Assembly: GCA_030849075.1 (NCBI GenBank)
Contig: JASAOO010003451.1
Span: forward strand, 1-64,000
DNA: 64,000 nt
Direction: 5' to 3'
DNA from: Zelonia costaricensis
Taxonomy: Eukaryota; Euglenozoa; Kinetoplastea; Trypanosomatida; Trypanosomatidae
Part shown: one piece after another, positions 32,397-59,432 of the stretch
Position numbering within the stretch: position 1 is the first letter of the stretch
How the letters are laid out: every line of letters starts with the position of its first letter
Position numbers and translations under genes: made by a program
The notes under the pieces: generated by a model
The model's input: the letters and a program-made list of their open reading frames with translations, nothing else
The model's database searches: none
Told to the model about the DNA's origin: nothing

Positions 32397-34184
32397 CTAC
32401 GCGTCGACCAGCTCCATCCAAATACGCGCGCGGAACGTCTTGTACAGGTGCCGCACGAGCTCGCGGAAGTCCATGCGCTGCTGCGCCTCGTAGAAAAAGG
32501 TGAGCTTCTTTTTGTCGAACTGGTACTCGGCATCGACAATGACCATCGGCAGCGAGTGGTCCAGCACCAGCTGCGCACACACGTCGATGGCGCGACGCTC
32601 GAGCTCCGCCTGCGTGCCCAGCAGCTGCTGGACGTCCGTCTCCGTCGCGAGCCGCAAGACGGTGCCGTTGCCCACGCCGAGGTTGCGCGGCAGCTTGCTG
32701 TCGGTCAGCCCGACACCCACCACGCGGCGCTTGCGTCCGCCCGGCGTCGACTTGTCCGTTGCCCCGCCGCCATTGCCGTCAGAGGCGACCTCGCACCAAA
32801 CATACACCACCACGCCGAGGTCCTCGCCGCGGTCGCCGCCGACGACGACGTAGCTGCCCGGCGCCACGTACTGGTGCGACTCGTACTGCAGCACGCGCTT
32901 CCGCTTGAACTCCACCAGCACCTCGCACGGGCTGCGCGGGTCGATACCCAGTCGCTCCGGCGTGTCCGGCGAGCCGCCCGCGACCTTCACCACCTTCGGC
33001 CGTCCCCGCTCGTACGCAGAGCGCACGCTCGTCGTCAAGTGCTGGTCGTGCAGCGCGCGCAGCGTGTCGACCGGGATGCTGTTCCGTGCAACGGTGCCGC
33101 CGCCAAAGCCGTTCGCCTCTGGCGAGTGGTCGCCGCTGTGGTCCTGGTGGCGCTCGTAGGGCGATGACTGTGCCTGGCGGGTTTGCGCGGTCGAGAAGGC
33201 GTGGAGAGGGCTTTCGGTGTACTCCACCGGGCTCTGCGAGGACTCCTCCGGCCCGCTCCCGCCAGTGAGCTGCTCGTAGAGCGAGTCGAAGTTGAAAGCG
33301 GAGGCCGCCGTCGTGTTTGCCGGGGCGGAGGACATGTGGAAGCGCTCGATGAGGTCCTCCAGCGACAGCTTCTGCGTGGCCTGCGGCGAGGCCATGAGGG
33401 AGTCGTGCTGGCTGCGGTTGCTGTTCCGGTTAGGTGCCGTGGAGAAGTACTCGCCGCTGACGCCGTCGTCGAGCGCGGCGAGAGTGCTCAGCGCCGCTGG
33501 CAGGTGTGACTGCGGCATGCTCGGGCTCTTGCTCGCCGGCTGAGAGAGCGCCAGCTGCTTGTTCGGTGGTGTGACGGCGTCCGTCTTGAAGGCGCGCAAG
33601 CCACCCGCACCGACGCCACCGCTAGCGCTGCCGCTGCTCGTCCCCGCCGTAAACTTGGTGCCGTTCAGTGCGCTGCTCAAGTAGCCGCCGATGCCGCCGT
33701 TGTTGCGGGCGTTTTCGGAGAGGGCGTCCGCCATGGACAGCGAGGCCGTCTGGCCGTTGAGACTGCTCATGAGGGAGCGGGTGGCGACGCCCGGGTTGGA
33801 GCGGAGCGGGGTGGCGTTCATGGCGTTGGCGGCGCTGGGCGTCATGGCGGCGTTGCCCACCACGCCGGTGTTGGACGTGGGCAGCCCCATCAAGTCAGCG
33901 TTCGGCATGCTGTGCACGGTGGAGAAGGGCGACGCGTTCATGCTGCTGTAGCCGCCGTTGGCCGAGTGCAGCGGACTGAGCTGCTGCTGTTGCTGCTGAT
34001 GCTGCTGCTGCTGCACGCGCATTCGGAGTTGCTCGATGCGGCTGTTCAGCTCCGCGTACGAAAGCTGCAGCGTCTTCTGCTGCTGCGCAAAGAAGTCGTC
34101 GGCGTCTATAACGAGCCGACGCACCACGCTCGCGAGCTGTTCGCGCTCCATGGACTGGTGAGACATGTTCGATAGCGGCATCAT
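32397..34184 (-). CDS. PSP1-domain RNA-binding-type protein (RBP45/RBP33-like)
   Basis: A 595-residue protein whose last 176 residues (from about 420) form a PSP1 C-terminal domain: VEFKRKRVLQYES, then GSYVVVGGDRGEDLGVVVYV, and a final block DHSLPMVIVDAEYQFDKKKLTF and FRELVRHLYKTFRARIWMELV. In Crithidia, PSP1-domain proteins RBP33 and RBP45 are subunits of a complex that binds cycling-sequence elements in S-phase mRNAs, so a role in mRNA regulation is likely. The N-terminal part is disordered, with a short coiled coil and poly-Gln (about 50-69), then Ser/Ala/Asn-rich sequence. Two ATGs stand together at the start (34184 and 34181). A T-tract/AG lies upstream at 34214. Confidence 0.8.
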   Translation of the reverse strand: MMPLSNMSHQSMEREQLASVVRRLVIDADDFFAQQQKTLQLSYAELNSRIEQLRMRVQQQQHQQQQQQLSPLHSANGGYSSMNASPFSTVHSMPNADLMGLPTSNTGVVGNAAMTPSAANAMNATPLRSNPGVATRSLMSSLNGQTASLSMADALSENARNNGGIGGYLSSALNGTKFTAGTSSGSASGGVGAGGLRAFKTDAVTPPNKQLALSQPASKSPSMPQSHLPAALSTLAALDDGVSGEYFSTAPNRNSNRSQHDSLMASPQATQKLSLEDLIERFHMSSAPANTTAASAFNFDSLYEQLTGGSGPEESSQSPVEYTESPLHAFSTAQTRQAQSSPYERHQDHSGDHSPEANGFGGGTVARNSIPVDTLRALHDQHLTTSVRSAYERGRPKVVKVAGGSPDTPERLGIDPRSPCEVLVEFKRKRVLQYESHQYVAPGSYVVVGGDRGEDLGVVVYVWCEVASDGNGGGATDKSTPGGRKRRVVGVGLTDSKLPRNLGVGNGTVLRLATETDVQQLLGTQAELERRAIDVCAQLVLDHSLPMVIVDAEYQFDKKKLTFFYEAQQRMDFRELVRHLYKTFRARIWMELVDA

Positions 34185-38106: not shown

Positions 38107-39120
38107 CTAATCCGTCAGCTGCGAAACCTTCAGTGCGTACTCGATCCGCTCCGCCTCGGACATCTGATCCAGCGGCTTCGTCAGCGGCACCAGGTCGCGC
38201 AGACGCACCGGGTTTTGGCTCTGCAGCTGTGCGCGCAGTCCGAGGTACGGGTTAGACTGGCGTTCACGGGCGGTGGAGCTGGGTAGGTGCGCACTCACCG
38301 GCTGAAGGCCGAGGGCGCGGCACATTTCGTTGCACTCATGCTTCTCGACCCACTTGTCGATGCCCTCCTGACCCATGTTGCCCATCCCAAGTCCCTTGCC
38401 GTCCTCCGTGTGGATCTGCGGGTCTGTCAGAAAGTCGTTGACGCCCTGCAGATCGCACAGCAGCATCGAGCCGCCACTCTCCACCAGCGTGAAGTGCGAG
38501 AAGGCCTCGGCCGCCTCGAAGATCTCCGTGCGCCGCTTCGCTTGCGTCGACGTCAGCGCCGCCTTCTTGTCATCGCGGTAGGTCTCGCCGTAGTTGCTGT
38601 TGTACTTGGTGAAGCGGCCGTTTAGCATTGGCTCCATCACGAACATGACCTCACGTGTGTCCTGCGTCTTGTAGGAGAAGAAGCCTGTGCGCTTCTCCTG
38701 GTACGGCTCCGGGATGTTGCGGCGTGGAATGCGGACTACATAGCACTGCAGGAAAGAGATGTTCGGCTTGTGAGCAGCGGTCAGGTGAATGCGGTTGAAG
38801 TTGTTTGCAAACTCCTCGCACATGCACTGCGCCTCGCCCTCGTTGAAGTAGTCCTTCTCTACCACGTCGCTGATGTTGCGGCGGAACATCTTGGCCACCA
38901 TCGGCGTGCCGGCGCCCTCCTCATCAACGTCCTCGACCTCGTAGCAGACGCGCATACCGCCGTGGCCGATGCCCTTGTGCGGACGCGGAATTCGGATGAG
39001 GCAGTCGATCTCTTTCCACACGTACGAGCGGAGATCGAAGATGTACTTCTTTGCAGGACACACCACCGGCGGCTCCTCCTCCGTCCGCGCCGCGTCACGG
39101 GCAGTAGCAGCAGCAGCCAT
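38107..39120 (-). CDS. Alpha-kinase (MHCK/eEF2K family), single domain
   Basis: A 337-residue atypical serine/threonine kinase, essentially one alpha-kinase domain (about 25-275) plus a short tail. All hallmark residues are present: Lys77 in MVAKMFRR (ATP), Glu163 in VMEP (hinge), Asp223 and Gln225 in CDLQGV (catalytic loop), Asp233 in LTDPQ, the Gly-rich loop GKGLGMGNMG (241-250), and zinc ligands His209, His261, Cys263 and Cys267 (H-x-C-x3-C). It should be active; the substrate is unknown. The tail PLTKPLDQMSEAERIEYAL recurs in the kinase gene at 53.6 kb. ATG 39120. Confidence 0.93.
   Translation of the reverse strand: MAAAATARDAARTEEEPPVVCPAKKYIFDLRSYVWKEIDCLIRIPRPHKGIGHGGMRVCYEVEDVDEEGAGTPMVAKMFRRNISDVVEKDYFNEGEAQCMCEEFANNFNRIHLTAAHKPNISFLQCYVVRIPRRNIPEPYQEKRTGFFSYKTQDTREVMFVMEPMLNGRFTKYNSNYGETYRDDKKAALTSTQAKRRTEIFEAAEAFSHFTLVESGGSMLLCDLQGVNDFLTDPQIHTEDGKGLGMGNMGQEGIDKWVEKHECNEMCRALGLQPVSAHLPSSTARERQSNPYLGLRAQLQSQNPVRLRDLVPLTKPLDQMSEAERIEYALKVSQLTD
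38350..38459 (-). repeat. 110-bp block identical to 53885-53994
   Basis: Inside the first alpha-kinase gene, over the catalytic loop and Gly-rich loop codons. Base-for-base identical to 53885-53994 in the third alpha-kinase gene, synonymous positions included, with clear divergence on both sides. Direct paralogous repeat, probably a gene conversion tract. Confidence 0.9.
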
Positions 39121-40660: not shown

Positions 40661-43603
40661 ACTGGCAGTGTTGCATGACTGCGAAAAAAGAGAAGAGAAA
40701 AACAGACAACCTGACGAGGGGGACGAGGCAGCTCAGCACGCCGAGAGGCAAAACGAGAGAAAAAAATGGGGACCGGAGCCGACGACGTTTGCGCGCTCGC
40801 ACACACCTGGAGGCTCAACTAACACCGCCGTAAAACCAGCCAGGAAAAAAAAAAGTGGTTAGAGGAACGCCTCACGGTGGAGACGGCTTCCACCAAAGTC
40901 AGGAGGAGCAGCAAGAGATAGAGATAAAGAAGAGGAGTAGCGTTCGATCCGTGAGGAAGAGCAAGCAAGGCATGCATAGCACGACAACTAAACCACCAAC
41001 AAGACACGCACGCCCAACACGAACACCGTCGACCTCACCAATGTACAGGCCCCGCCCGGCACCCCCCCCCCCTCAACCACCTCGTGAGACCGATGGAGGC
41101 ATCGGAGGAACGACGGGGGGCAGGGGGGGGATGGGGTCGGGAAGACGCAGGACAACAACAAAAAGACAACGCGCGAAGCAAAAAGAATGCAGAAATGGCG
41201 AACCACAGGAAAAATCAGCCGAAAGGGGGGCGAGGGAGGACAGAGGGGGGCTCGTGGGCAAAGCCGGAGGAGGGCGGAGGAGGGAGGCGAACCAAAGAGT
41301 GCTGGGACGACAACGGAGCAGGGCGGGAGGGAGAAACGGCCTTGGATACGAAAAATGGTCAGAGGAGAAGCAGAAAATGGACCACTGTGAAGGAAGAATA
41401 TGACGCGTGGGGGGGGGAGGCGGCGTTGTGTGGCGGGGGAGGGAGGGGGCACTGCTACCGACTACTACTCGCTGAGTCTGTCGCGCCAACCTTCCTCCAC
41501 TCCTCCCGCGGTCGCGGTTCAGAAGTGGAGTAGTTGAGGAGCTGGCTTTTCTTTTCTCTCGCTCCTCTGCCGCTCACCGGTTCACAGCAACGGCGTTCGA
41601 ATTGTGCGCCGTGAAAACGAACTGCGACAGCGTCACGTAGACAACCTCCCACAGCACGGCACACGCGGGAAGTCAAGCGAAGTAGTGAGAAGGTGGGCGT
41701 GGTGCCGGCAGTACACAGAGCCACCACGACGCTGGTCCACTACGGCCGGCCAAGGCTGAAGCGAAACGGCCGTGAGGCTCTACCAAAGCAACAGGCCCTC
41801 ATCTTTCTTTTTGCATGCGGACGCACCAGATCACAAACACACAAAGACACACACACCACACATACTGACGCGAAAATCAGCAAAAACCAAGTAGCGGGAG
41901 CTACTCGCTCACGCTCAGACGCAAAGAGAAAATGCACGCACGCCGGCAGCGACACACGTGAGCAGCAAGACACTGTCATTCAAACGCACACGCCCGCACA
42001 CATACGGACACGCACTCAATGAGAGGAACCCAATGAAGAGGAGAAGCATGCGTGGCACTCGGAGCGGCAGCGAGAATCAGAACACAAAAGCGCACGAAGA
42101 AAGCGAGAGAGAGAGAAAGAATGACGCACTCCACGCATCACGCGCAGCAGGAGTACAAAAAACACGGCGAGGAAAGAGAAAACCAGAAGAAGGTGGGCCA
42201 AAAAGCCACAAGAAAAAAAAGCCGAGGCTTCTATTCGAGGTGAAGAGGAACCGGAAAGAAAAAAGACAGAACGAAAGGGAATGCCCCGGAGCGCACGGTC
42301 GTGTGTGTCGGGGAGGACACGCGTGCCACCACAAGAGAGACAACCGAAGCTTGGTGAACAGAGTTCACTTCAACACAGCAGAGGACCTCCAGCACTACTC
42401 AGACAAAAGGAGAAAAACACACAGGAGAAGCGGATGGAAGCACCAGGGGCACACACTACGAGACAAACAAAGGTCAAAGAAGAGAGCAGCAGCCCAAAAC
42501 AGTGGCACGTTGCTGCGGTGCACGAGAGGCAGCTGGGTGACAGAGGAGCACAGCGCAAGGGAGAGAAACAGGTAGCAAAAAGGCAACAAAAGAAGTAAAA
42601 GTGGAGGCCCACACAGTGCCTCGATTTCCATTCAAGCACACCTCAGCGATACGGCGCTGTCTGCGGACGGTAGGCTCTGCCGGTGCGGCGAGTGGCACGC
42701 GGACAAAAAAAAAAAGCAGTCGACGCTCGTCGCGAGCGGCGCGTCGAGGCAATCGCAGGCCGTAACCAACAAAGAACACCTCTGAGTGCGTGTGTGTGTG
42801 TGTGCGTGTGTCTGTGCGTTTGGATGTGTTTGCGGGGGGGGGGGAGGGGTGAACGTAACAATGGTGTTTATCGGTGCAGTCGGCTGAGGTGCAGGAGCGA
42901 CGAGACAAGCCTCCGAGTCCATGTGAAGACAAAAACGCAAAAAAAGGGAAGCGTGAAGTACCCATTCAACGGGGAAAGAGAAAGAGAGAAAGCTAAAAAG
43001 TGAGGGAAGCGGAGTGCCGTGTTGGAAGCCAGGTCCAATCTGTGTCTTCTACCCGCAGCAGTCTCGCCGAAGCTCAGCTTCCAGCTCCGTGCAGGGTAGA
43101 GGAAGGCGGAAACGCGGCACTGCGTGTAAAACAAACTCGTTGCGTCAGGAGCAGAAACAAGCGTCAAAGCAAAGGCAGAAAGAAAAAAAAATGACGAAGC
43201 GAAGCGCAAAAGGAGACAATGGTGAAAGGAAGAAAAGAAAGAAGAACTGCAGAGCAGCGGGCAAACGACGCACACGTACACTCACAGGGAGAACGTGTCA
43301 TCAAGGAATAAGAAAGAGAAATGGAGGCGATGTCGGCGCAGTGTCATTGCTGCCGTGTACAATGGCGGAGCAGCTAGAGGAACACGGTATAAAGGAAAAA
43401 GAGAGATGGCAGGAAAAAGCGGCACAGCTTGGCAGCGGAGCCGTGCAGCACGAGAAAAGGAGCGTTGCCGTAGCACTGCCGTCATCTACTTACGCTCTCC
43501 TCCTCCCCCCAGTCTCCCCCCGGTACTTTCACGAGCACACGCGCCCACCAACACACCAATATCCGCACACACACACACACACCAGCGGACCACGAGCGCT
43601 GCG

Positions 43604-46600
43604 TCACTTTGCCTCGTCGATTTCCTTGCTGCGCTCGAAGATGGCGACGAAGCGGTTGTTCTTTTTTATGGCCTCCGTGACACCAACGCGCTGCTCGGTC
43701 AGCAGCTCGAGGTTCAGCGCCTTGCACACGCTGTTGCAGCGGTGGCGCTGAGCAAATTTCTGGATGCCGCGTGCACCGAAGTTGCCGACGCCGAGGCCCT
43801 GCCCGTCGTACGTGTGAACCTCGAGGTCGGTGAGGTCGCTACCGACGCCCTGCATATCGCACAGCAGCAGCCCGCCCTCACTCTTCTGCAGCGAGTAGTG
43901 CGACAGCGCCTCCACCGCCTCGAACACAAGCGTGCGCTCGCGGGTGGCCGCCGGTGTCTGGCGGGACTCGTTGGTGGGGTAGGCCTCCCCCATGTTGCCG
44001 TTGTACTTGGTGAAGCGGCCGACCAGCTTCGCCTCGACCGTGAACATGAGGCGCTGCGAGTCGCAGGTGCGGTAGGAGAAGAACCCGGTCCGCTTCGCCA
44101 GCAGTTCGGGCGACAGGTCGGCCCGGTCAATCGCGATGACGGCCCCGTCCAGCACGTTGACGCGCACGGCGTTGCCCTCGCGCTTCTCTTTGTTGAAATC
44201 CGCGGCGAAGAGCACAGACAACTTCTGCACCGTGACGCTGGTGAAGTAGTCCTTCTCCACAACGTCCTTGATGGTGCGGCGGTACATCTTGGCCACCATG
44301 ACGGACTCCTCGCCAAGCTCGGGGTCGACATCGGCTACCTCGAAGCAGACGCGCATGCCGCCCTGGCCAATGCCGCGGTCCGGGTTCGAGATGCGCACAA
44401 AAATGCGCCGCGCCGTCCAGGAGAGGGTGTCGATGTCGAGGTCGTACCGGGTGGCCGGGAAGAGATACGTCGTGTCGATCTTCTTCGCCGCAAGCCGCGA
44501 CTGCTCGGCCTGCGTAAGCGCTCGGCGGGACGGCACCCCCTTGCGCCCGGCAGCCCACGGACGAAGCATGAGATCGCCGGCAGGCTTCATGGGGTCCGGT
44601 GCCGGTGCCGCCGGCGTGGCCGAAGCGGCCTTGGTCGGCTCCTCGCGGGTGCGGTTGACGCTCGCCGCAGCGGAGGAGGCCGGGTCCGTGTAGCGGCGCG
44701 GCGTCGCAAAGGCAAGCCGCTCGTTCACGGCCATGGTGTGCTGCTGCACGTAGTTGACGTACTTCATGAGCTGACTCGACGAGATGTTGTACAGCTTCAG
44801 CCGCGGCGGAAGCGGCTCCATGCCGAGCACACCACACAGCTCGTTGCACTTGTGCGAGTGCACCCACGCGTCGATGCCCGCCTGCCCGCGGTTGATCGTC
44901 TCGAAGCCGCACCCGTTCGAGGTGTTGACCTGCGGGTGCATGAGGAGGCCGTACTTGCACTGGAAGTTGCACACCAGCATGTGATTGCCCGACTTGTGCA
45001 GCGTGAAGTGGGAGAAGGCGTCGACGACTTGGCGCAGCACGAGATCGTCGAAGCCGTAAGCGTCGCGCTTCATGCCGCCCGCCGCCGCCGGACGCTGCTG
45101 CGCGTCGCTGTGGAACTCCGGCTCGACAACGAACATGACGTCGCCAGAGTCCGCCGAGGTACGGGCGAAGAAGTTGGAATCGCGCATGTGCGCCTTTACA
45201 CTGTCCGGAATGTTCTCGCGCGCGACGCGGACCGCGTAGGCGGAGTAGAAGTCGAGCTCTCGCTCAAAGACGCCCTTCTTGCGGTACGACCGGAAGACCT
45301 GCCCGAGCGCGACGCAGACGCAGTAGGCGTCACCAATGTGGTAGTAGTCCGCGTCGAAGGTGTTCTCGCGCATGATGAAGCGCGCCCGCATCGGGACGCC
45401 GCGGCCGCCATCCAGTTCCTCCTCCACGGCGAAGCAGGCGTACTTGCCCTCCACCAACTCCGGCGACGACGGCGCGCAGACGGTGAGTCGCATGGGCACC
45501 TCCGACCACTTCGCGCTGCTCGGCATGAAAACGTACTTGGTCGCATCCACCGTCACCTTGGTAGATGGCAGCTCGACCGGCGCCGGCAGCGACGCGACCC
45601 CCGTCGAGGTCACGACGGAGCTCTCGGAGACGGCGTCGTAGATCGCGTCGCAGTTCGCGTCGAGCTCCTCGCCAGAGCCACCGATGCGGACGACGTGCCG
45701 CATTTGCCGGATGCTGCGCAGAAAGTCGGTGTAGTAATTGTCCTGGGCATCGAGCGGGTTGATGAAGACCGGCTTCTTGGGCTGCAGCCGGCCCTGGGCG
45801 TCGAAGATCGAGATGCCGAGGGCGCGGCAGGTGTCGCCGCAGCGGTGGGTATGCGCCCACGCCTGAATGGCCGCCTTGCCGCCGTCGCCCATGCGGAATC
45901 CCTCGCGCTCTGTGGTGTGAAACAGCGGGTCGAGCAGGTAGCCGTTGCTGCGGTAGAAGCCGTGGACGACCATGCGCTCGCGGCTCTTGACGTACGTGAA
46001 GTGCGATAACCCGTCGGCGATGTCGTGGTAGATCTCACGCACCCATGACGGGTCGCCAGGGGGGTACACGTGCCCGTTGTCCACCTCCGGCGACGCGAAG
46101 GACGCGTCGACAGAGGCGCAGGCAAGCGAGTTGGGCTCCATGAAGAACATCATCTCACGAGTGTCCTGGGTGCGGTACGAGAAGAAGCCCTTGCGCGACT
46201 CGCGAATCGCAGGGTCGTAGATGGACTCCATGTGGAGGCGCACCACCACCCGGTTCGTCAGCAGCGGGAGGTGGAACTTGACGTAGCCGGGGCGGGACTC
46301 GGAGGAGGTGTAGTCACGCGCAAACTCCTCGCAAAGGGTCTGAGCTTGGCCAAGGCTGAAGTAGTCCGCCTCAGCCACGTCGGCGATGTTGTGCCGGTAC
46401 ATCTTCGCGAACATCGGCGCCGCCTGCTTCACCGGGTCCAGCAGTTCCACAGCAAAGGTGGCGTAGTAGTCGTCCTGGGCGACGCCTCGGTTGTAGTGTA
46501 GCACCCGGATAGACACCGAGTGCGTCATCCAGCGCGACAGGCGGCGGTCGTACACGTACTTGACGCCCTTCACGATGACCGGCGGCGAGTCGCCGACCCG

Positions 46601-47017
46601 GTGGGTGAGCATGTAGCGGGTCACGGCGGCCGGCGGTGGCATTCTCTTCTGCGCTGCTGCGACAGACTCCTTCGCGGAGGCGATGTCGTCGCCGGCGTAG
46701 TTGGCGTCGCTGCCCGGCTCCCACAGCAGCGATGTCGCATCATTCCGCACGTGGTCCTGATCGATATCGGTGTAGATCTGCGGGCGGCTCAGTGAGCTGG
46801 AGTTGGCGCGGTTGCGGGACGGGCTCGCCGCGGAGGTCACCGTCTCCGTATCCGCCTTGCTCTGCGTCTCGGTGATGTGCATCGTCATCGTGTTCGCGTT
46901 GGAGGTGCTGGGGTTGAGCTTTGCCTTCGCCTTTGCCTTATCGTTGCTCGTCTCCTTCTCCGCCCGGTCCTTGCGCGGCGGCGACCGCGGCTCCTTGTCC
47001 ATCACCGTCTTGCCCAT
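43604..47017 (-). CDS. Triple alpha-kinase-domain protein with two pseudokinase modules
   Basis: A 1,137-residue protein made of three alpha-kinase modules after a 130-residue disordered head. Module 1 (about 150-405) keeps Lys205, Glu294, Asp363 (LLDP) and the zinc set His339, His391, Cys393, Cys397, but VHGFYRS replaces the catalytic DLQG and the Gly loop reads REGFRMGDGG. Module 2 (about 493-735) has Arg546 for Lys, Asn684 for the catalytic Asp (CNFQC), His694 for the second Asp and no Gly loop (GCGFETINRG), yet keeps the zinc ligands His670, His722, Cys724 and Cys728. Module 3 (about 846-1105) is intact: Lys910, Glu995, Asp1054/Gln1056, Asp1064, GQGLGVGNFG and H-x-C-x3-C at 1092-1098. Linkers are Ala/Pro/Ser-rich. 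Probably one active kinase joined to two regulatory or scaffold pseudokinases. Substrate unknown. Confidence 0.93.
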   Translation of the reverse strand: MGKTVMDKEPRSPPRKDRAEKETSNDKAKAKAKLNPSTSNANTMTMHITETQSKADTETVTSAASPSRNRANSSSLSRPQIYTDIDQDHVRNDATSLLWEPGSDANYAGDDIASAKESVAAAQKRMPPPAAVTRYMLTHRVGDSPPVIVKGVKYVYDRRLSRWMTHSVSIRVLHYNRGVAQDDYYATFAVELLDPVKQAAPMFAKMYRHNIADVAEADYFSLGQAQTLCEEFARDYTSSESRPGYVKFHLPLLTNRVVVRLHMESIYDPAIRESRKGFFSYRTQDTREMMFFMEPNSLACASVDASFASPEVDNGHVYPPGDPSWVREIYHDIADGLSHFTYVKSRERMVVHGFYRSNGYLLDPLFHTTEREGFRMGDGGKAAIQAWAHTHRCGDTCRALGISIFDAQGRLQPKKPVFINPLDAQDNYYTDFLRSIRQMRHVVRIGGSGEELDANCDAIYDAVSESSVVTSTGVASLPAPVELPSTKVTVDATKYVFMPSSAKWSEVPMRLTVCAPSSPELVEGKYACFAVEEELDGGRGVPMRARFIMRENTFDADYYHIGDAYCVCVALGQVFRSYRKKGVFERELDFYSAYAVRVARENIPDSVKAHMRDSNFFARTSADSGDVMFVVEPEFHSDAQQRPAAAGGMKRDAYGFDDLVLRQVVDAFSHFTLHKSGNHMLVCNFQCKYGLLMHPQVNTSNGCGFETINRGQAGIDAWVHSHKCNELCGVLGMEPLPPRLKLYNISSSQLMKYVNYVQQHTMAVNERLAFATPRRYTDPASSAAASVNRTREEPTKAASATPAAPAPDPMKPAGDLMLRPWAAGRKGVPSRRALTQAEQSRLAAKKIDTTYLFPATRYDLDIDTLSWTARRIFVRISNPDRGIGQGGMRVCFEVADVDPELGEESVMVAKMYRRTIKDVVEKDYFTSVTVQKLSVLFAADFNKEKREGNAVRVNVLDGAVIAIDRADLSPELLAKRTGFFSYRTCDSQRLMFTVEAKLVGRFTKYNGNMGEAYPTNESRQTPAATRERTLVFEAVEALSHYSLQKSEGGLLLCDMQGVGSDLTDLEVHTYDGQGLGVGNFGARGIQKFAQRHRCNSVCKALNLELLTEQRVGVTEAIKKNNRFVAIFERSKEIDEAK

Positions 47018-53629: not shown

Positions 53630-55483
53630 TCAGCTGGAAAGCAGCGAAGACAGCCGAATTGCGTAGTCTAGCCGCTCCTCGTCTGTCATCTCCGACAGCG
53701 GCTTCGTCAGCGGCACCAGGTCCTCTGGACGCACCGGGCCCTGACTGCGCAGCTTGGCGCGCAGCACTTGGTAGTAGCTGACTCGCGTCTCGTTCTCGAC
53801 GGTGCGAGGGAAGCAGCTCTGGCCCTTGTCCAGCGGCTTTAGCTTCATGGCACGGCACACCTCATTGCAGGTGTGCGTCTGGATCCACTTGTCGATGCCC
53901 TCCTGACCCATGTTGCCCATCCCAAGTCCCTTGCCGTCCTCCGTGTGGATCTGCGGGTCTGTCAGAAAGTCGTTGACGCCCTGCAGATCGCACACAAGCA
54001 TCGAGCCACCGCTGTCCGTGAGTGTAAAGTGCGAGAAGGCCTCGACGGCGAGCAGCACGTTGTGGCGCTTCCGCTCCTCCTCGGAGCTGAGGCGCTTCTC
54101 AAAGCCCTCGTACACGCCGCCGAAGTTGTTCGTGTACTTGGTGAAGTTCCCCCTGAGGCGCGGCTCCATGGTGAAGAGAATGTCGCCAGAGTCGGTCGGA
54201 CGGTACGAGAAGAAGCCGGAGCGCTTGGACTGGTAGGCAGCCGGCAGGTCCTTTCGCCGGATGCGCACCGTCTCGCACTGCAAGAACGACACCACACGAC
54301 GCTGAAAGCCCGGTACAAGCGGGACCTTGTTGAACTTGTCCGCAAAGACGCCGCAGATGCACTGCGCCTCACCCTCGTTGAAGTAGTCGTTCTCGACGAT
54401 GCCGGTGATGTTGTGGCGGAACATCTTGGCCACCATCGGCGTGCTGAAGCCCGTCTCGTCGACGTCCTCGACCACGAAGCAAACCCGCATCGCGCCCTGG
54501 CTCACGCCGCGGTTGGGGTGCAGCACCCGAATCATCGTGTCCACCTCCTTCCACGCGCACGTCTTCACGTCATAAACAAACTTGCGCGCTGGCACGAGCA
54601 GGTCGGGCTCATCGGTGGGCAGGTGCTCCGGGCTGTCGTGTGTGTGCATCGGCGCTACATACGCCTTGTGGGGCGGCGGCGAGGCCGGTGCACGACGCTC
54701 GCCGTGTGCAGGTGCGGCCGGCTTCGACATGGCCGCCGCCGCCGCCACCGCCGCCGGCTGGGGGGACGAAACCGCGCGACTGCGCTGCGGTGCGTCGGCA
54801 GCGACCGGCTGCGGCTGAGGTGGGACAGCCGGTGAGACGCCGAGAGAGTTGCTGCCGCTCTTCGTCATCGGTTTCTTATTAGCAACGACGACGGGATGCA
54901 GAGGGGCACCACCACGCTGCGCCGGCCCTGGCGACATTGCTGCGCGTTGAGGCGCCTGGGCGGCGGCTGGTGCGGCAGCGGCAACGGCAGCCGACGCGGC
55001 GCGCCGCCGGGGCGCGGGGTGGGTGGCGTTCGGGTCCGCGTGCAGCGGCATTGCCAGCGGCGATGAACTGCCGGGGGTGAAGGAGACATCGGCCTCGGCG
55101 GAGTAGGGAGTCGTGGTGCGGCCCGCCGCGGCGCGCTGTCGGGCAGCTGCGGGCAGCCGCTCCGGCATCGGTGAGCCGACAGAAAAGGCGATGGAGCCTG
55201 GGGTGCTGTCTGCGGTGAGGTTGAGCGTGCTGGCCAGAGACTCCCACGCAGGGGAGGTGCTGCCGCTCACTTTGCCAGGGCCAGTGGCTGCCGATGCGGC
55301 GCTGCGCGCCGTCGGTGGGGACCGGGGCTCGCCGTGACCGCTGCCAGCCTGACCATGGGTGGGCTCGATGCTGATCTCGTTGCTGCTGCCCGTCTTTGAG
55401 CTGTCGTTCGACTGCTGCTTCGACTTCGGCTTCGCATTCGCCTTCTTCCCGTCCAGCTGCGGGGCGCTGCGAGCGGGCTTCAT
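53630..55483 (-). CDS. Alpha-kinase with long disordered N-terminal region
   Basis: A 617-residue protein. The first 300 or so residues are low complexity, rich in Ala, Pro, Ser and Lys, without visible domains. The C-terminal half is an alpha-kinase close to the one at 38.1 kb, with ATP Lys in MVAKMFRHN, hinge Glu in TMEP, catalytic CDLQGV, LTDPQ, Gly loop GKGLGMGNMG and zinc motif THTCNEVC. All key residues are intact. It ends with the same type of tail (VPLTKPLSEMTDEERLDYAI), so the two genes are recent paralogues. The head probably directs localisation or regulation. The first in-frame ATG is 55483; the frame is open further upstream only from a GTG. Confidence 0.92.
   Translation of the reverse strand: MKPARSAPQLDGKKANAKPKSKQQSNDSSKTGSSNEISIEPTHGQAGSGHGEPRSPPTARSAASAATGPGKVSGSTSPAWESLASTLNLTADSTPGSIAFSVGSPMPERLPAAARQRAAAGRTTTPYSAEADVSFTPGSSSPLAMPLHADPNATHPAPRRRAASAAVAAAAPAAAQAPQRAAMSPGPAQRGGAPLHPVVVANKKPMTKSGSNSLGVSPAVPPQPQPVAADAPQRSRAVSSPQPAAVAAAAAMSKPAAPAHGERRAPASPPPHKAYVAPMHTHDSPEHLPTDEPDLLVPARKFVYDVKTCAWKEVDTMIRVLHPNRGVSQGAMRVCFVVEDVDETGFSTPMVAKMFRHNITGIVENDYFNEGEAQCICGVFADKFNKVPLVPGFQRRVVSFLQCETVRIRRKDLPAAYQSKRSGFFSYRPTDSGDILFTMEPRLRGNFTKYTNNFGGVYEGFEKRLSSEEERKRHNVLLAVEAFSHFTLTDSGGSMLVCDLQGVNDFLTDPQIHTEDGKGLGMGNMGQEGIDKWIQTHTCNEVCRAMKLKPLDKGQSCFPRTVENETRVSYYQVLRAKLRSQGPVRPEDLVPLTKPLSEMTDEERLDYAIRLSSLLSS
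53885..53994 (-). repeat. 110-bp block identical to 38350-38459
   Basis: Second copy of the perfectly conserved catalytic-loop block shared with the first alpha-kinase gene, in the same orientation and reading frame. Confidence 0.9.
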
Positions 55484-57842: not shown

Positions 57843-59432
57843 TTACTTGCGCAGTGCGTCGTGGATGTTCCAGAAGAGGCTTCCGCTGTGAATGGTGGCC
57901 TTGAACTTGGTGGCGAGGAGGATGGTGCCGCTGAGACGCCGGTGCAGGGAGTACACCGGGGTCGGCGGGGGGCGCAGTCGCAGCTTCACCATCGTCGGCA
58001 CATTCGCCTGAATCATCGAGGGCAGGTTCTCGGCGGCGAAGTCGAAGGGCTGTTCGCGGTGCTGGAACGGCTTGCCGAGCAGCACGACGCTGTTGCAGTG
58101 TGCGTCCAGCATCTCCTTAACTTCCCGCCCGGTGAGAAAGCCAAGCTTGATGCTCTTCGCAATGATCGTCTCCCGGTCTCCTGTGGCAGCCGCTGCCACG
58201 ACATCGAGGTAGTCGGCCAAGAAGTCGCTGTCGTACTCGCGCGAGGCACCAAAGTCGAGGAGGTACACCTTCTGCTCCTTCCCGTTGTACAAAAAGTTGG
58301 AGAAGTTGGGGTCGGTCTGCATGAAGCGCCACACGAACAGCTCCTTCAGCGTCAGGTCCATGAACCTCTCGGCGATGTAGTTGCGCAGCTCCTGGGGAAT
58401 GTCGCGCCGCTTGCCCAGCTGGTCAATCGTGACGCCGTGCACGTACTCGCTCACGAGGACCTGGTCGGTAGAAATGGACTCGAACACCTGAGGGACGTAG
58501 AAGAGCCCAGCGAGCGAGGCGTCGGCCGCGACCAGCTCGCGGTAGCGCATCTGCTTTGCCGCCTCAAGCTTGTACTGGCACTCGGCGCTGAGCTCGCTGC
58601 GCAGCTCCTGCAAGATCTTCTCCACGAACATGCCCGGCGGCAGCACGCCGACGGACATGAGCATCTTCAGGTTTGCCACGTCGGAGTCGATGCTCTGCGC
58701 CACGCCAGGGTACTGCACCTTCACCGCCACCTCTTGCGGTGGCTGCGACGGGTCTGTTCCGGCGGCGCCGGGCCTCAGCGTCGCGCGGTGCACCTGCCCG
58801 ATGCTTGCCGCCGCGACCGGCGTGTCGTCAAAGGACGCGAACAGCTCCTGGCGCCACTGCGCGCTGCCGAACTCCTTGGCCAGCGTGCGATCCAGCTGGG
58901 CCGGCGGCATGGCGAAGGCCTGGTCCCGCACCCGCTCGAAGAGCGCCGTCACGTGCGGCGGGACGGTGTTCTCGTCCTGAATGCTGAGCATCTGCCCGAG
59001 CTTCAGCACCGCGCCCCGCATGCGGCAGAGCGTGTCAACGATGTGCTGGTGTCCGCGCTCGGACAGCAGGCCGCCGGCCGGCGTGCTGCCGACGACCTTC
59101 TCCCAGCCGAGCTGCATGAAGAGGGAGGCGAAGCCGGCAGCGCGGCCGACGCGCGTCGAGGGGACGTGGCGATACCGCACCGCTCCCGCCGCCGTCGGCT
59201 TGGAGAGGTCCTCGGCCAGCGCACTCGGCAGTGTCAGCGAGGAGGCTGCGTGGCGGGGCGGAGCCGCGGCAGACGCAGCCGTTTGCCGGACATCCTCAGA
59301 CTCAGCCGCAGTGGACGCGGCGGTGGTGGCCCCGGCCAAGCCCGCGTTGGAAAGGGCGGCTGCGGCAATGCGCTGGAGGCCGCGTGCGATGTTGCACAGC
59401 GGGGTGTCGCGCCGCACCCGCGATACACGCAT
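57843..59432 (-). CDS. COQ8: COQ8/ADCK (ABC1/UbiB) atypical kinase, mitochondrial
   Basis: A 529-residue member of the ABC1/UbiB family closest in layout to COQ8/ADCK3, which supports coenzyme Q biosynthesis in mitochondria. The Arg-rich, Ala-rich N-terminus (MRVSRVRRDTPLCNIARGLQR) fits a mitochondrial import signal. Family motifs are in order: KxGQ at 144-147 (LKLGQMLSIQDE), the Ala-rich loop AAAS at 207-210 followed by IGQVH, ATP Lys238 in AVKVQYPG, a conserved ECQY at about 284-287, catalytic DPNFSN at 374-379, and DFG at 393-395 (LLDFGASREY). All signature residues are present. ATG 59432; the frame is open for 20 more codons upstream, with an Asn-rich stretch, but only from GTG. Confidence 0.92.
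   Translation of the reverse strand: MRVSRVRRDTPLCNIARGLQRIAAAALSNAGLAGATTAASTAAESEDVRQTAASAAAPPRHAASSLTLPSALAEDLSKPTAAGAVRYRHVPSTRVGRAAGFASLFMQLGWEKVVGSTPAGGLLSERGHQHIVDTLCRMRGAVLKLGQMLSIQDENTVPPHVTALFERVRDQAFAMPPAQLDRTLAKEFGSAQWRQELFASFDDTPVAAASIGQVHRATLRPGAAGTDPSQPPQEVAVKVQYPGVAQSIDSDVANLKMLMSVGVLPPGMFVEKILQELRSELSAECQYKLEAAKQMRYRELVAADASLAGLFYVPQVFESISTDQVLVSEYVHGVTIDQLGKRRDIPQELRNYIAERFMDLTLKELFVWRFMQTDPNFSNFLYNGKEQKVYLLDFGASREYDSDFLADYLDVVAAAATGDRETIIAKSIKLGFLTGREVKEMLDAHCNSVVLLGKPFQHREQPFDFAAENLPSMIQANVPTMVKLRLRPPPTPVYSLHRRLSGTILLATKFKATIHSGSLFWNIHDALRK

What the first reader, a model, noticed from the sequence alone, without database searches (positions are those of the whole stretch)
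43604..47017. One chain with three alpha-kinase modules, two of them pseudokinases
The sequence directly shows three complete alpha-kinase-like modules in tandem. Module 3 has every hallmark residue. Module 1 has lost the catalytic Asp and Gln and most of the Gly loop but keeps the ATP Lys. Module 2 has lost the Lys, both Asp residues and the Gly loop. Yet all three keep the His/His-x-Cys-x3-Cys zinc site that holds the fold together, so the first two were probably kept for a non-catalytic job such as substrate docking or allosteric control. Alpha-kinases normally carry one kinase domain; a pseudokinase-pseudokinase-kinase layout is, to my knowledge, not a described architecture. That novelty claim is inference.
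Basis: partly seen in the sequence, partly recalled or inferred. Interest (0 to 1): 0.85.

Follow-up and report, generated by a model that had tools for sequence, protein, structure and literature searches.

The report
Three-module kinase with two dead modules
A single protein of a Leishmania-like parasite strings together three copies of an unusual (alpha) kinase fold, of which only the last keeps the machinery for catalysis, and relatives in related parasites keep the same dead-dead-live layout, so the dead copies may steer the live one.

Summary

It is no oddity of one genome: 14 homologues were found, in Leishmania, Leptomonas, Lotmaria, Novymonas and four of unnamed origin; motifs align in every module they cover. 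Of 26 sites fixed in active relatives, the 4 zinc ligands survive in every dead module counted, against 4 of 22 (module 1) and 3 of 22 (module 2) others. Two single-domain alpha-kinase genes flank it. L. major's large alpha-kinases were counted in 2005; my open-access searches turned up no description of this architecture, though databases hold the proteins under generic kinase names.

Most likely: one active kinase regulated or targeted in cis by two pseudokinase modules. That role is inferred, untested.

The parts
43604..47017 (-). whole gene, 1137 aa, three alpha-kinase modules
46610..47017 (-). N-terminal tail, residues 1-136, low confidence in the model (probably disordered), poorly conserved
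   Evidence: pLDDT under 50; residues 1-134 mean pairwise identity 26% among 11 close proteins, the window's included
45803..46570 (-). module 1 (residues 150-405): pseudokinase; keeps Lys (K205) and second Asp (D363), lost P-loop Arg, Asp756 (G353) and Gln758 (Y355) equivalents
   Evidence: Pfam 6.6e-21; residues; model
45827..45847 (-). module 1 zinc motif H391-x-C393-x3-C397
44813..45541 (-). module 2 (residues 493-735): pseudokinase; Lys to R546, Asp756 to N684, Asp766 to H694, P-loop Arg lost
   Evidence: Pfam 1.1e-18; residues; fold
44834..44854 (-). module 2 zinc motif H722-x-C724-x3-C728
43703..44482 (-). module 3 (residues 846-1105): the seven tested catalytic residues present (R889, K910, F1002, K1004, D1054, Q1056, D1064)
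43724..43744 (-). module 3 zinc motif H1092-x-C1094-x3-C1098
38107..39120 (-). neighbouring single-domain alpha-kinase gene, 337 aa, with relatives in many trypanosomatids including Trypanosoma
   Evidence: Pfam 5.6e-55; homologues
53630..55483 (-). neighbouring single-domain alpha-kinase gene, 617 aa
   Evidence: Pfam 1.7e-48

Best explanation
The protein is one probably active alpha-kinase (module 3) carrying two pseudokinase alpha-kinase modules in front of it. Shown by sequence: three alpha-kinase modules; the tested catalytic residues complete only in module 3; the same layout in the homologues; zinc ligands kept in every module. Inferred: the dead modules act in cis, holding module 3 in a regulated state and presenting it to its partner or substrate, in the manner of pseudokinase-kinase pairs such as JAK JH2-JH1 (recalled). 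Module 1, which keeps Lys645 in most homologues and Asp766 in all, is the better candidate for a nucleotide-sensing regulator; module 2, which has lost the site most thoroughly, is the better candidate for pure docking. The gene probably arose in a local alpha-kinase cluster by duplication and fusion, modules 1 and 2 perhaps sharing an ancestor apart from module 3.
Against: I found no biochemical, genetic or interaction data; activity of M3 is itself inferred. In M3 the second Gly of the C-lobe glycine motif (G1076 here) is Asp or Ser in 5 of 15 homologues, though Gly in 66 of 67 single-domain rows, so M3 is not fully canonical everywhere. The full-length model has pTM 0.37, so no contact between M1/M2 and M3 can be claimed. 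Long branches (M2 above all) weaken the joint origin of M1 and M2; the tree program warned of this. M3 was not a single clade (one clade in 12% of bootstrap trees); Strigomonas P0067 lies with it. M1 keeps Lys and Asp766, so residual activity cannot be excluded. Alignment near F720/K722 is uncertain in M1, which has an insertion there (F720 aligned as Phe in 13 of 14, K722 as Lys in 0 of 14). Four of 15 M2 sequences have Lys rather than Arg. Orthologue DNA was not on hand, so selection was judged by protein conservation, not dN/dS.
Confidence: 0.55

Rival explanations
1. The two dead modules are only a scaffold: they bind substrate or a subcellular structure and have no allosteric effect on module 3, as the ALPK3 pseudokinase organises myomesins in muscle.
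For: ALPK3 shows that an inactive alpha-kinase protein can serve as a non-catalytic organiser (PMC9698156, abstract and passages). The linkers of about 85-110 residues are poorly conserved and of low model confidence in part, which suits independent beads.
Against: Nothing specific; the fixed Asp766 and mostly fixed Lys and Gly353 of M1 are more than a bare scaffold seems to need.
Confidence: 0.3
2. Module 1 is not dead: it keeps Lys645 and Asp766 equivalents and does a different chemistry (weak phosphotransfer, ATPase or another nucleotide transfer).
For: D766 equivalent 14 of 14, K645 12 of 14, hinge Glu 14 of 14. Asp766 is the residue phosphorylated in several MHCK-A crystals (PMC4876393, passages).
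Against: D756 and R592 equivalents absent in 14 of 14, Gln758 in 11 of 14; the D756A mutant of MHCK-A is called inactive in its PDB title (4zs4).
Confidence: 0.1
3. Modules 1 and 2 are decaying relics of tandem duplication without function.
For: The D756 position of M2 varies between species (His 8, Asn 3, Arg, Gln, Glu and Asp 1 each, of 15).
Against: Open frame; 72 and 67% mean identity against 26-43% in N-terminus and linkers; zinc site kept in 29 of 29; same architecture over 15 proteins.
Confidence: 0.03
4. It is the trypanosomatid eEF2 kinase, as the database name says.
For: Database names 'related to elongation factor-2 kinase efk-1b isoform-like'; similarity of M3 to eEF2K chains in the PDB (E 1.5e-14).
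Against: MHCK-A chains match slightly better (E 2.6e-15); no Pfam family besides PF02816 listed at E up to 10, so no Sel1-like repeats as in eEF2K (that definition is recalled).
Confidence: 0.02

Closest known systems
Alpha-kinase family (PF02816; MHCK-A, eEF2K, TRPM6/7, ALPK1-3)
   Same: fold, zinc site, and in module 3 the tested catalytic residues
   Different: each of the 9 PDB sequences matched matches in one stretch only; here one chain has three modules, two without a normal active site
L. major large alpha-kinases and chromosome 36 alpha-kinase cluster (PMC1266030)
   Same: an L. major orthologue was found (P0005, 64% identity); P0005, P0018 and P0036, the L. major counterparts of the three window genes, list the same longest contig length (2748001), as expected of one cluster
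   Different: that paper, in the passages seen, gives size and clustering, not three modules or loss of catalytic residues
ALPK3 (human muscle alpha-pseudokinase)
   Same: alpha-kinase domain that lost conserved residues; called the first pseudokinase of the family (PMC9698156)
   Different: the passages seen speak of one alpha-kinase domain; no active partner in tandem was mentioned
JAK kinases (JH2 pseudokinase before JH1 kinase; recalled)
   Same: pseudokinase upstream of an active kinase of the same family in one chain
   Different: conventional protein kinases, one pseudokinase; no evidence here of similar contacts

Membership tests
Alpha-kinase family (PF02816) | profile match over the curated cut-off in each module | tested here: met
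   75.7, 68.4, 139.7 bits against 21.3
Alpha-kinase family (PF02816) | zinc ligands His / His-x-Cys-x3-Cys (identity of ligands recalled) | tested here: met
   all three modules; 44 of 44 modules
Alpha-kinase family (PF02816) | alpha-kinase fold by structure | tested here: met
Active alpha-kinase: module 3 | P-loop Arg, Lys645, Asp756, Gln758, Asp766 (MHCK-A numbering) | tested here: met
   15 of 15; activity itself not testable here
Active alpha-kinase: modules 1 and 2 | P-loop Arg, Lys645, Asp756, Gln758, Asp766 (MHCK-A numbering) | tested here: not met
   Arg 0 of 14 and 0 of 15; Asp756 0 of 14 and 1 of 15
eEF2 kinase | C-terminal Sel1-like repeats (recalled definition) | tested here: not met
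   no Pfam family besides PF02816 listed at E up to 10
Myosin heavy chain kinase (Dictyostelium type) | WD40 repeats beside the kinase domain (recalled definition) | tested here: not met
TRPM6/7 channel-kinase; VWA-kinase | ion channel or VWA domain | tested here: not met
Regulatory pseudokinase in cis (JAK-like working) | pseudokinase changes activity of the linked kinase | not testable with these tools
   no interface predicted (pTM 0.37)
Pi-pocket regulated alpha-kinase (MHCK-A, eEF2K) | Lys684, Arg734, Thr736 phosphothreonine pocket | tested here: inconclusive
   R1019 (Arg 14, Lys 1 of 15) and T1021 (Ser 10, Thr 4, Asn 1 of 15) of M3 align with Arg734 and Thr736; no clear Lys684 equivalent

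The most novel reading that the evidence does not exclude
The first alpha-kinase in which an active domain is controlled in cis by two tandem pseudokinase domains, with module 1 a nucleotide-binding switch (Lys mostly and Asp766 always kept, Asp756 nearly always Gly) and module 2 a docking bead: a JAK-like logic evolved independently in another kinase family, all named carriers found here being Leishmania and its close kin.
Probability: 0.35. Interest if true: 0.75.

Novelty: new variant of a known kind. Interest (0 to 1): 0.55.

Why it matters
In the alpha-kinase family ALPK3 was called the first pseudokinase in 2022 (PMC9698156, passages). A conserved dead-dead-live alpha-kinase would give a second, independent case and a test of whether cis control by a dead copy is a general outcome of kinase duplication. 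It is present in Leishmania and lay outside the L. mexicana kinase deletion screen, which covered 193 conventional kinases and 11 PIKKs (PMC7902614, passages). Database names ('elongation factor-2 kinase-like') hide the architecture.

Tried and rejected
Assembly fusion or chance: rejected, since Leishmania assemblies with contigs of about 2.7 Mb encode the same protein. eEF2K or MHCK orthology by name: rejected on domain content. Triplication of one module as a single clade: rejected by AU test, p 0.0015, with long-branch caveats. Module contacts from the full-length model: not usable (pTM 0.37). Profile search with the homologue alignment gave 12 proteins, all found before; P0014 and P0015, members of that alignment, did not reappear, so the search (7993 candidates scored) was limited and says nothing on absence elsewhere. 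NCBIfam gave nothing. A Pi-pocket reading of module 3 stayed inconclusive. Papers with 'two alpha-kinase domains' or 'multiple alpha-kinase domains' concern dimers of TRPM7 (PMC4197629, passage) and oligomers of MHCK-A (PMC4876393, passages); the other papers of that list were seen as listing only, apart from PMC9698156.

Rows dropped: P0012 (861 aa as annotated) starts inside module 1, so it was left out of the M1 counts (n = 14); its remaining part agrees (Gly at D756, Val at Q758, Asp at D766, zinc ligands). In some searches, 8 of 67 single-domain rows were left out (P0027, P0030, P0068, P0069, P0075 short or broken; P0078, P0079, P0080 distant), leaving 59. With all 67 rows Lys645 is K in 62, R in 2, gap in 3; the zinc ligands are 66, 66, 66 and 67 of 67, the exceptions being one row (P0068). 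Trees used 40 of 67 singles with all 44 modules, then 28 of 67 singles and 27 of 44 modules. Pfam was run on 8 of 14 homologues.

Full report
What is there. The minus-strand ORF 43604-47017 is intact, 1137 aa. Pfam lists the alpha-kinase domain and nothing else at E up to 10, in three stretches; each module alone is far over the cut-off. A six-frame search of the window's own genome (28.7 Mb, 755 contigs) finds six alpha-kinase matches: three in this ORF, one on each side of it in the window (ORFs 38107-39120 and 53630-55483), and one on another contig in an ORF of 1860 aa from its first ATG. The stretch before the start codon is rich in pyrimidine runs, as expected before a trans-spliced trypanosomatid gene (the expectation is recalled).

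Which modules can work. Arg592, Lys645, Phe720, Lys722, Asp756, Asp766 and the structural zinc are taken from passages of PMC4876393; Gln758 and the identity of the zinc ligands are recalled. Module 3 has all seven catalytic residues tested. Module 1 has K205 and D363 (Lys645, Asp766) but G353 and Y355 in place of Asp756 and Gln758, and no P-loop Arg. Module 2 has R546, N684 and H694 in place of Lys645, Asp756 and Asp766. Over the homologues: M3 has the seven residues in 15 of 15, though the second Gly of its C-lobe glycine motif is Asp or Ser in 5 of 15. M1 lacks Asp756 in 14 of 14 (Gly 13, Lys 1) yet keeps Asp766 in 14 of 14 and Lys in 12 of 14; Gln758 survives in 3 of 14, the three most distant (P0013-P0015). 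M2 lacks the P-loop Arg in 15 of 15, has Lys in 4 of 15, Asp756 in 1 of 15, Asp766 in 2 of 15. The simplest reading is stepwise decay: Asp756 of M1 went before these lineages split, Gln758 later.

How widespread and how old. The protein search gave 14 homologues: named ones in Leishmania (donovani, major, sp. Namibia, guyanensis, tarentolae, mexicana), Leptomonas (pyrrhocoris, seymouri), Lotmaria and Novymonas, and four without a named organism (P0003, P0013, P0014, P0015). The 8 scanned have three alpha-kinase stretches each. Mean pairwise identity among 11 close proteins is 71.9, 66.7 and 76.5% for M1, M2 and M3, 26-43% for N-terminus and linkers, 53% for the short C-terminal tail. In the careful tree M1 is one clade (100/98), M2 is one clade (100/99) and the two group together (98/95); holding all three modules together is rejected (p-AU 0.0015), with the warning that long branches are involved. 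A 321-aa single-domain protein of Strigomonas (P0067) lies next to or within M3, so module 3 may descend from, or have given rise to, a free-standing gene. The Trypanosoma proteins are 210-381 aa and so single-domain, but that search could return only proteins up to 1.75 times 337 aa; the search that could return long ones listed none from Trypanosoma, with only the 7992 best candidates scored.

Mechanism. The best-supported reading is one active alpha-kinase with two pseudokinase modules acting in cis. That M1 and M2 lack a normal active site and are conserved is shown by sequence; that they regulate or target M3 is inference from analogy. Rivals are a pure scaffold role and residual chemistry in M1.

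What is known. Parsons et al. 2005 (PMC1266030, passages) reported four alpha-kinases in L. major, two of them over 1000 aa, three of the four on 12 kb of chromosome 36. An L. infantum gene with the orthologues' database name appears in an expression table as LINF_360054800 (PMC9323391, passage). ALPK3 was called the first alpha-kinase pseudokinase in 2022 (PMC9698156, abstract and passages). The L. mexicana deletion study covers 193 conventional kinases and 11 PIKKs (PMC7902614, passages). Listings of ten searches of open-access full text, and passages from eleven papers, showed me no description of tandem alpha-pseudokinases. Verdict: real, conserved, a new variant of a known kind, with its regulatory function still to be tested.

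Noticed in passing
window 38107-39120 and 53630-55483, minus strand: Two more, single-domain, alpha-kinase genes flank the finding, so the window holds a three-gene alpha-kinase cluster like that reported for L. major chromosome 36.
   Followed up: yes
L007 17-5599 (own genome, contig C577): Fourth alpha-kinase, 1860 aa, one alpha-kinase match in long low-complexity sequence; it has PPKK and RWTPQAFSHF, resembling by eye the Pi-pocket residues Lys684, Arg734 and Thr736 of MHCK-A.
   Followed up: partly
window 44723-45565, module 2: The Lys645 position is Arg in 11 of 15 module 2 sequences, the three most distant included, but Lys in P0003, P0006, P0007 and P0010, which looks like a reversal in the Leptomonas/Lotmaria branch.
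   Followed up: no
window 57843-59432, minus strand: ABC1-type atypical kinase gene (PF03109, E 4.1e-61), a second kind of atypical kinase within 20 kb.
   Followed up: no
window 43406-46009, plus strand: 867-aa antisense ORF overlapping the finding; the sense gene has GC3 of 0.86-0.91 by segment, so it is most likely a shadow ORF.
   Followed up: no
window 32397-34184, minus strand: Protein with a PSP1 C-terminal region (PF04468).
   Followed up: no
P0012 (L. mexicana): The annotated protein starts inside module 1 (861 aa), possibly a wrong start or a broken gene model.
   Followed up: no
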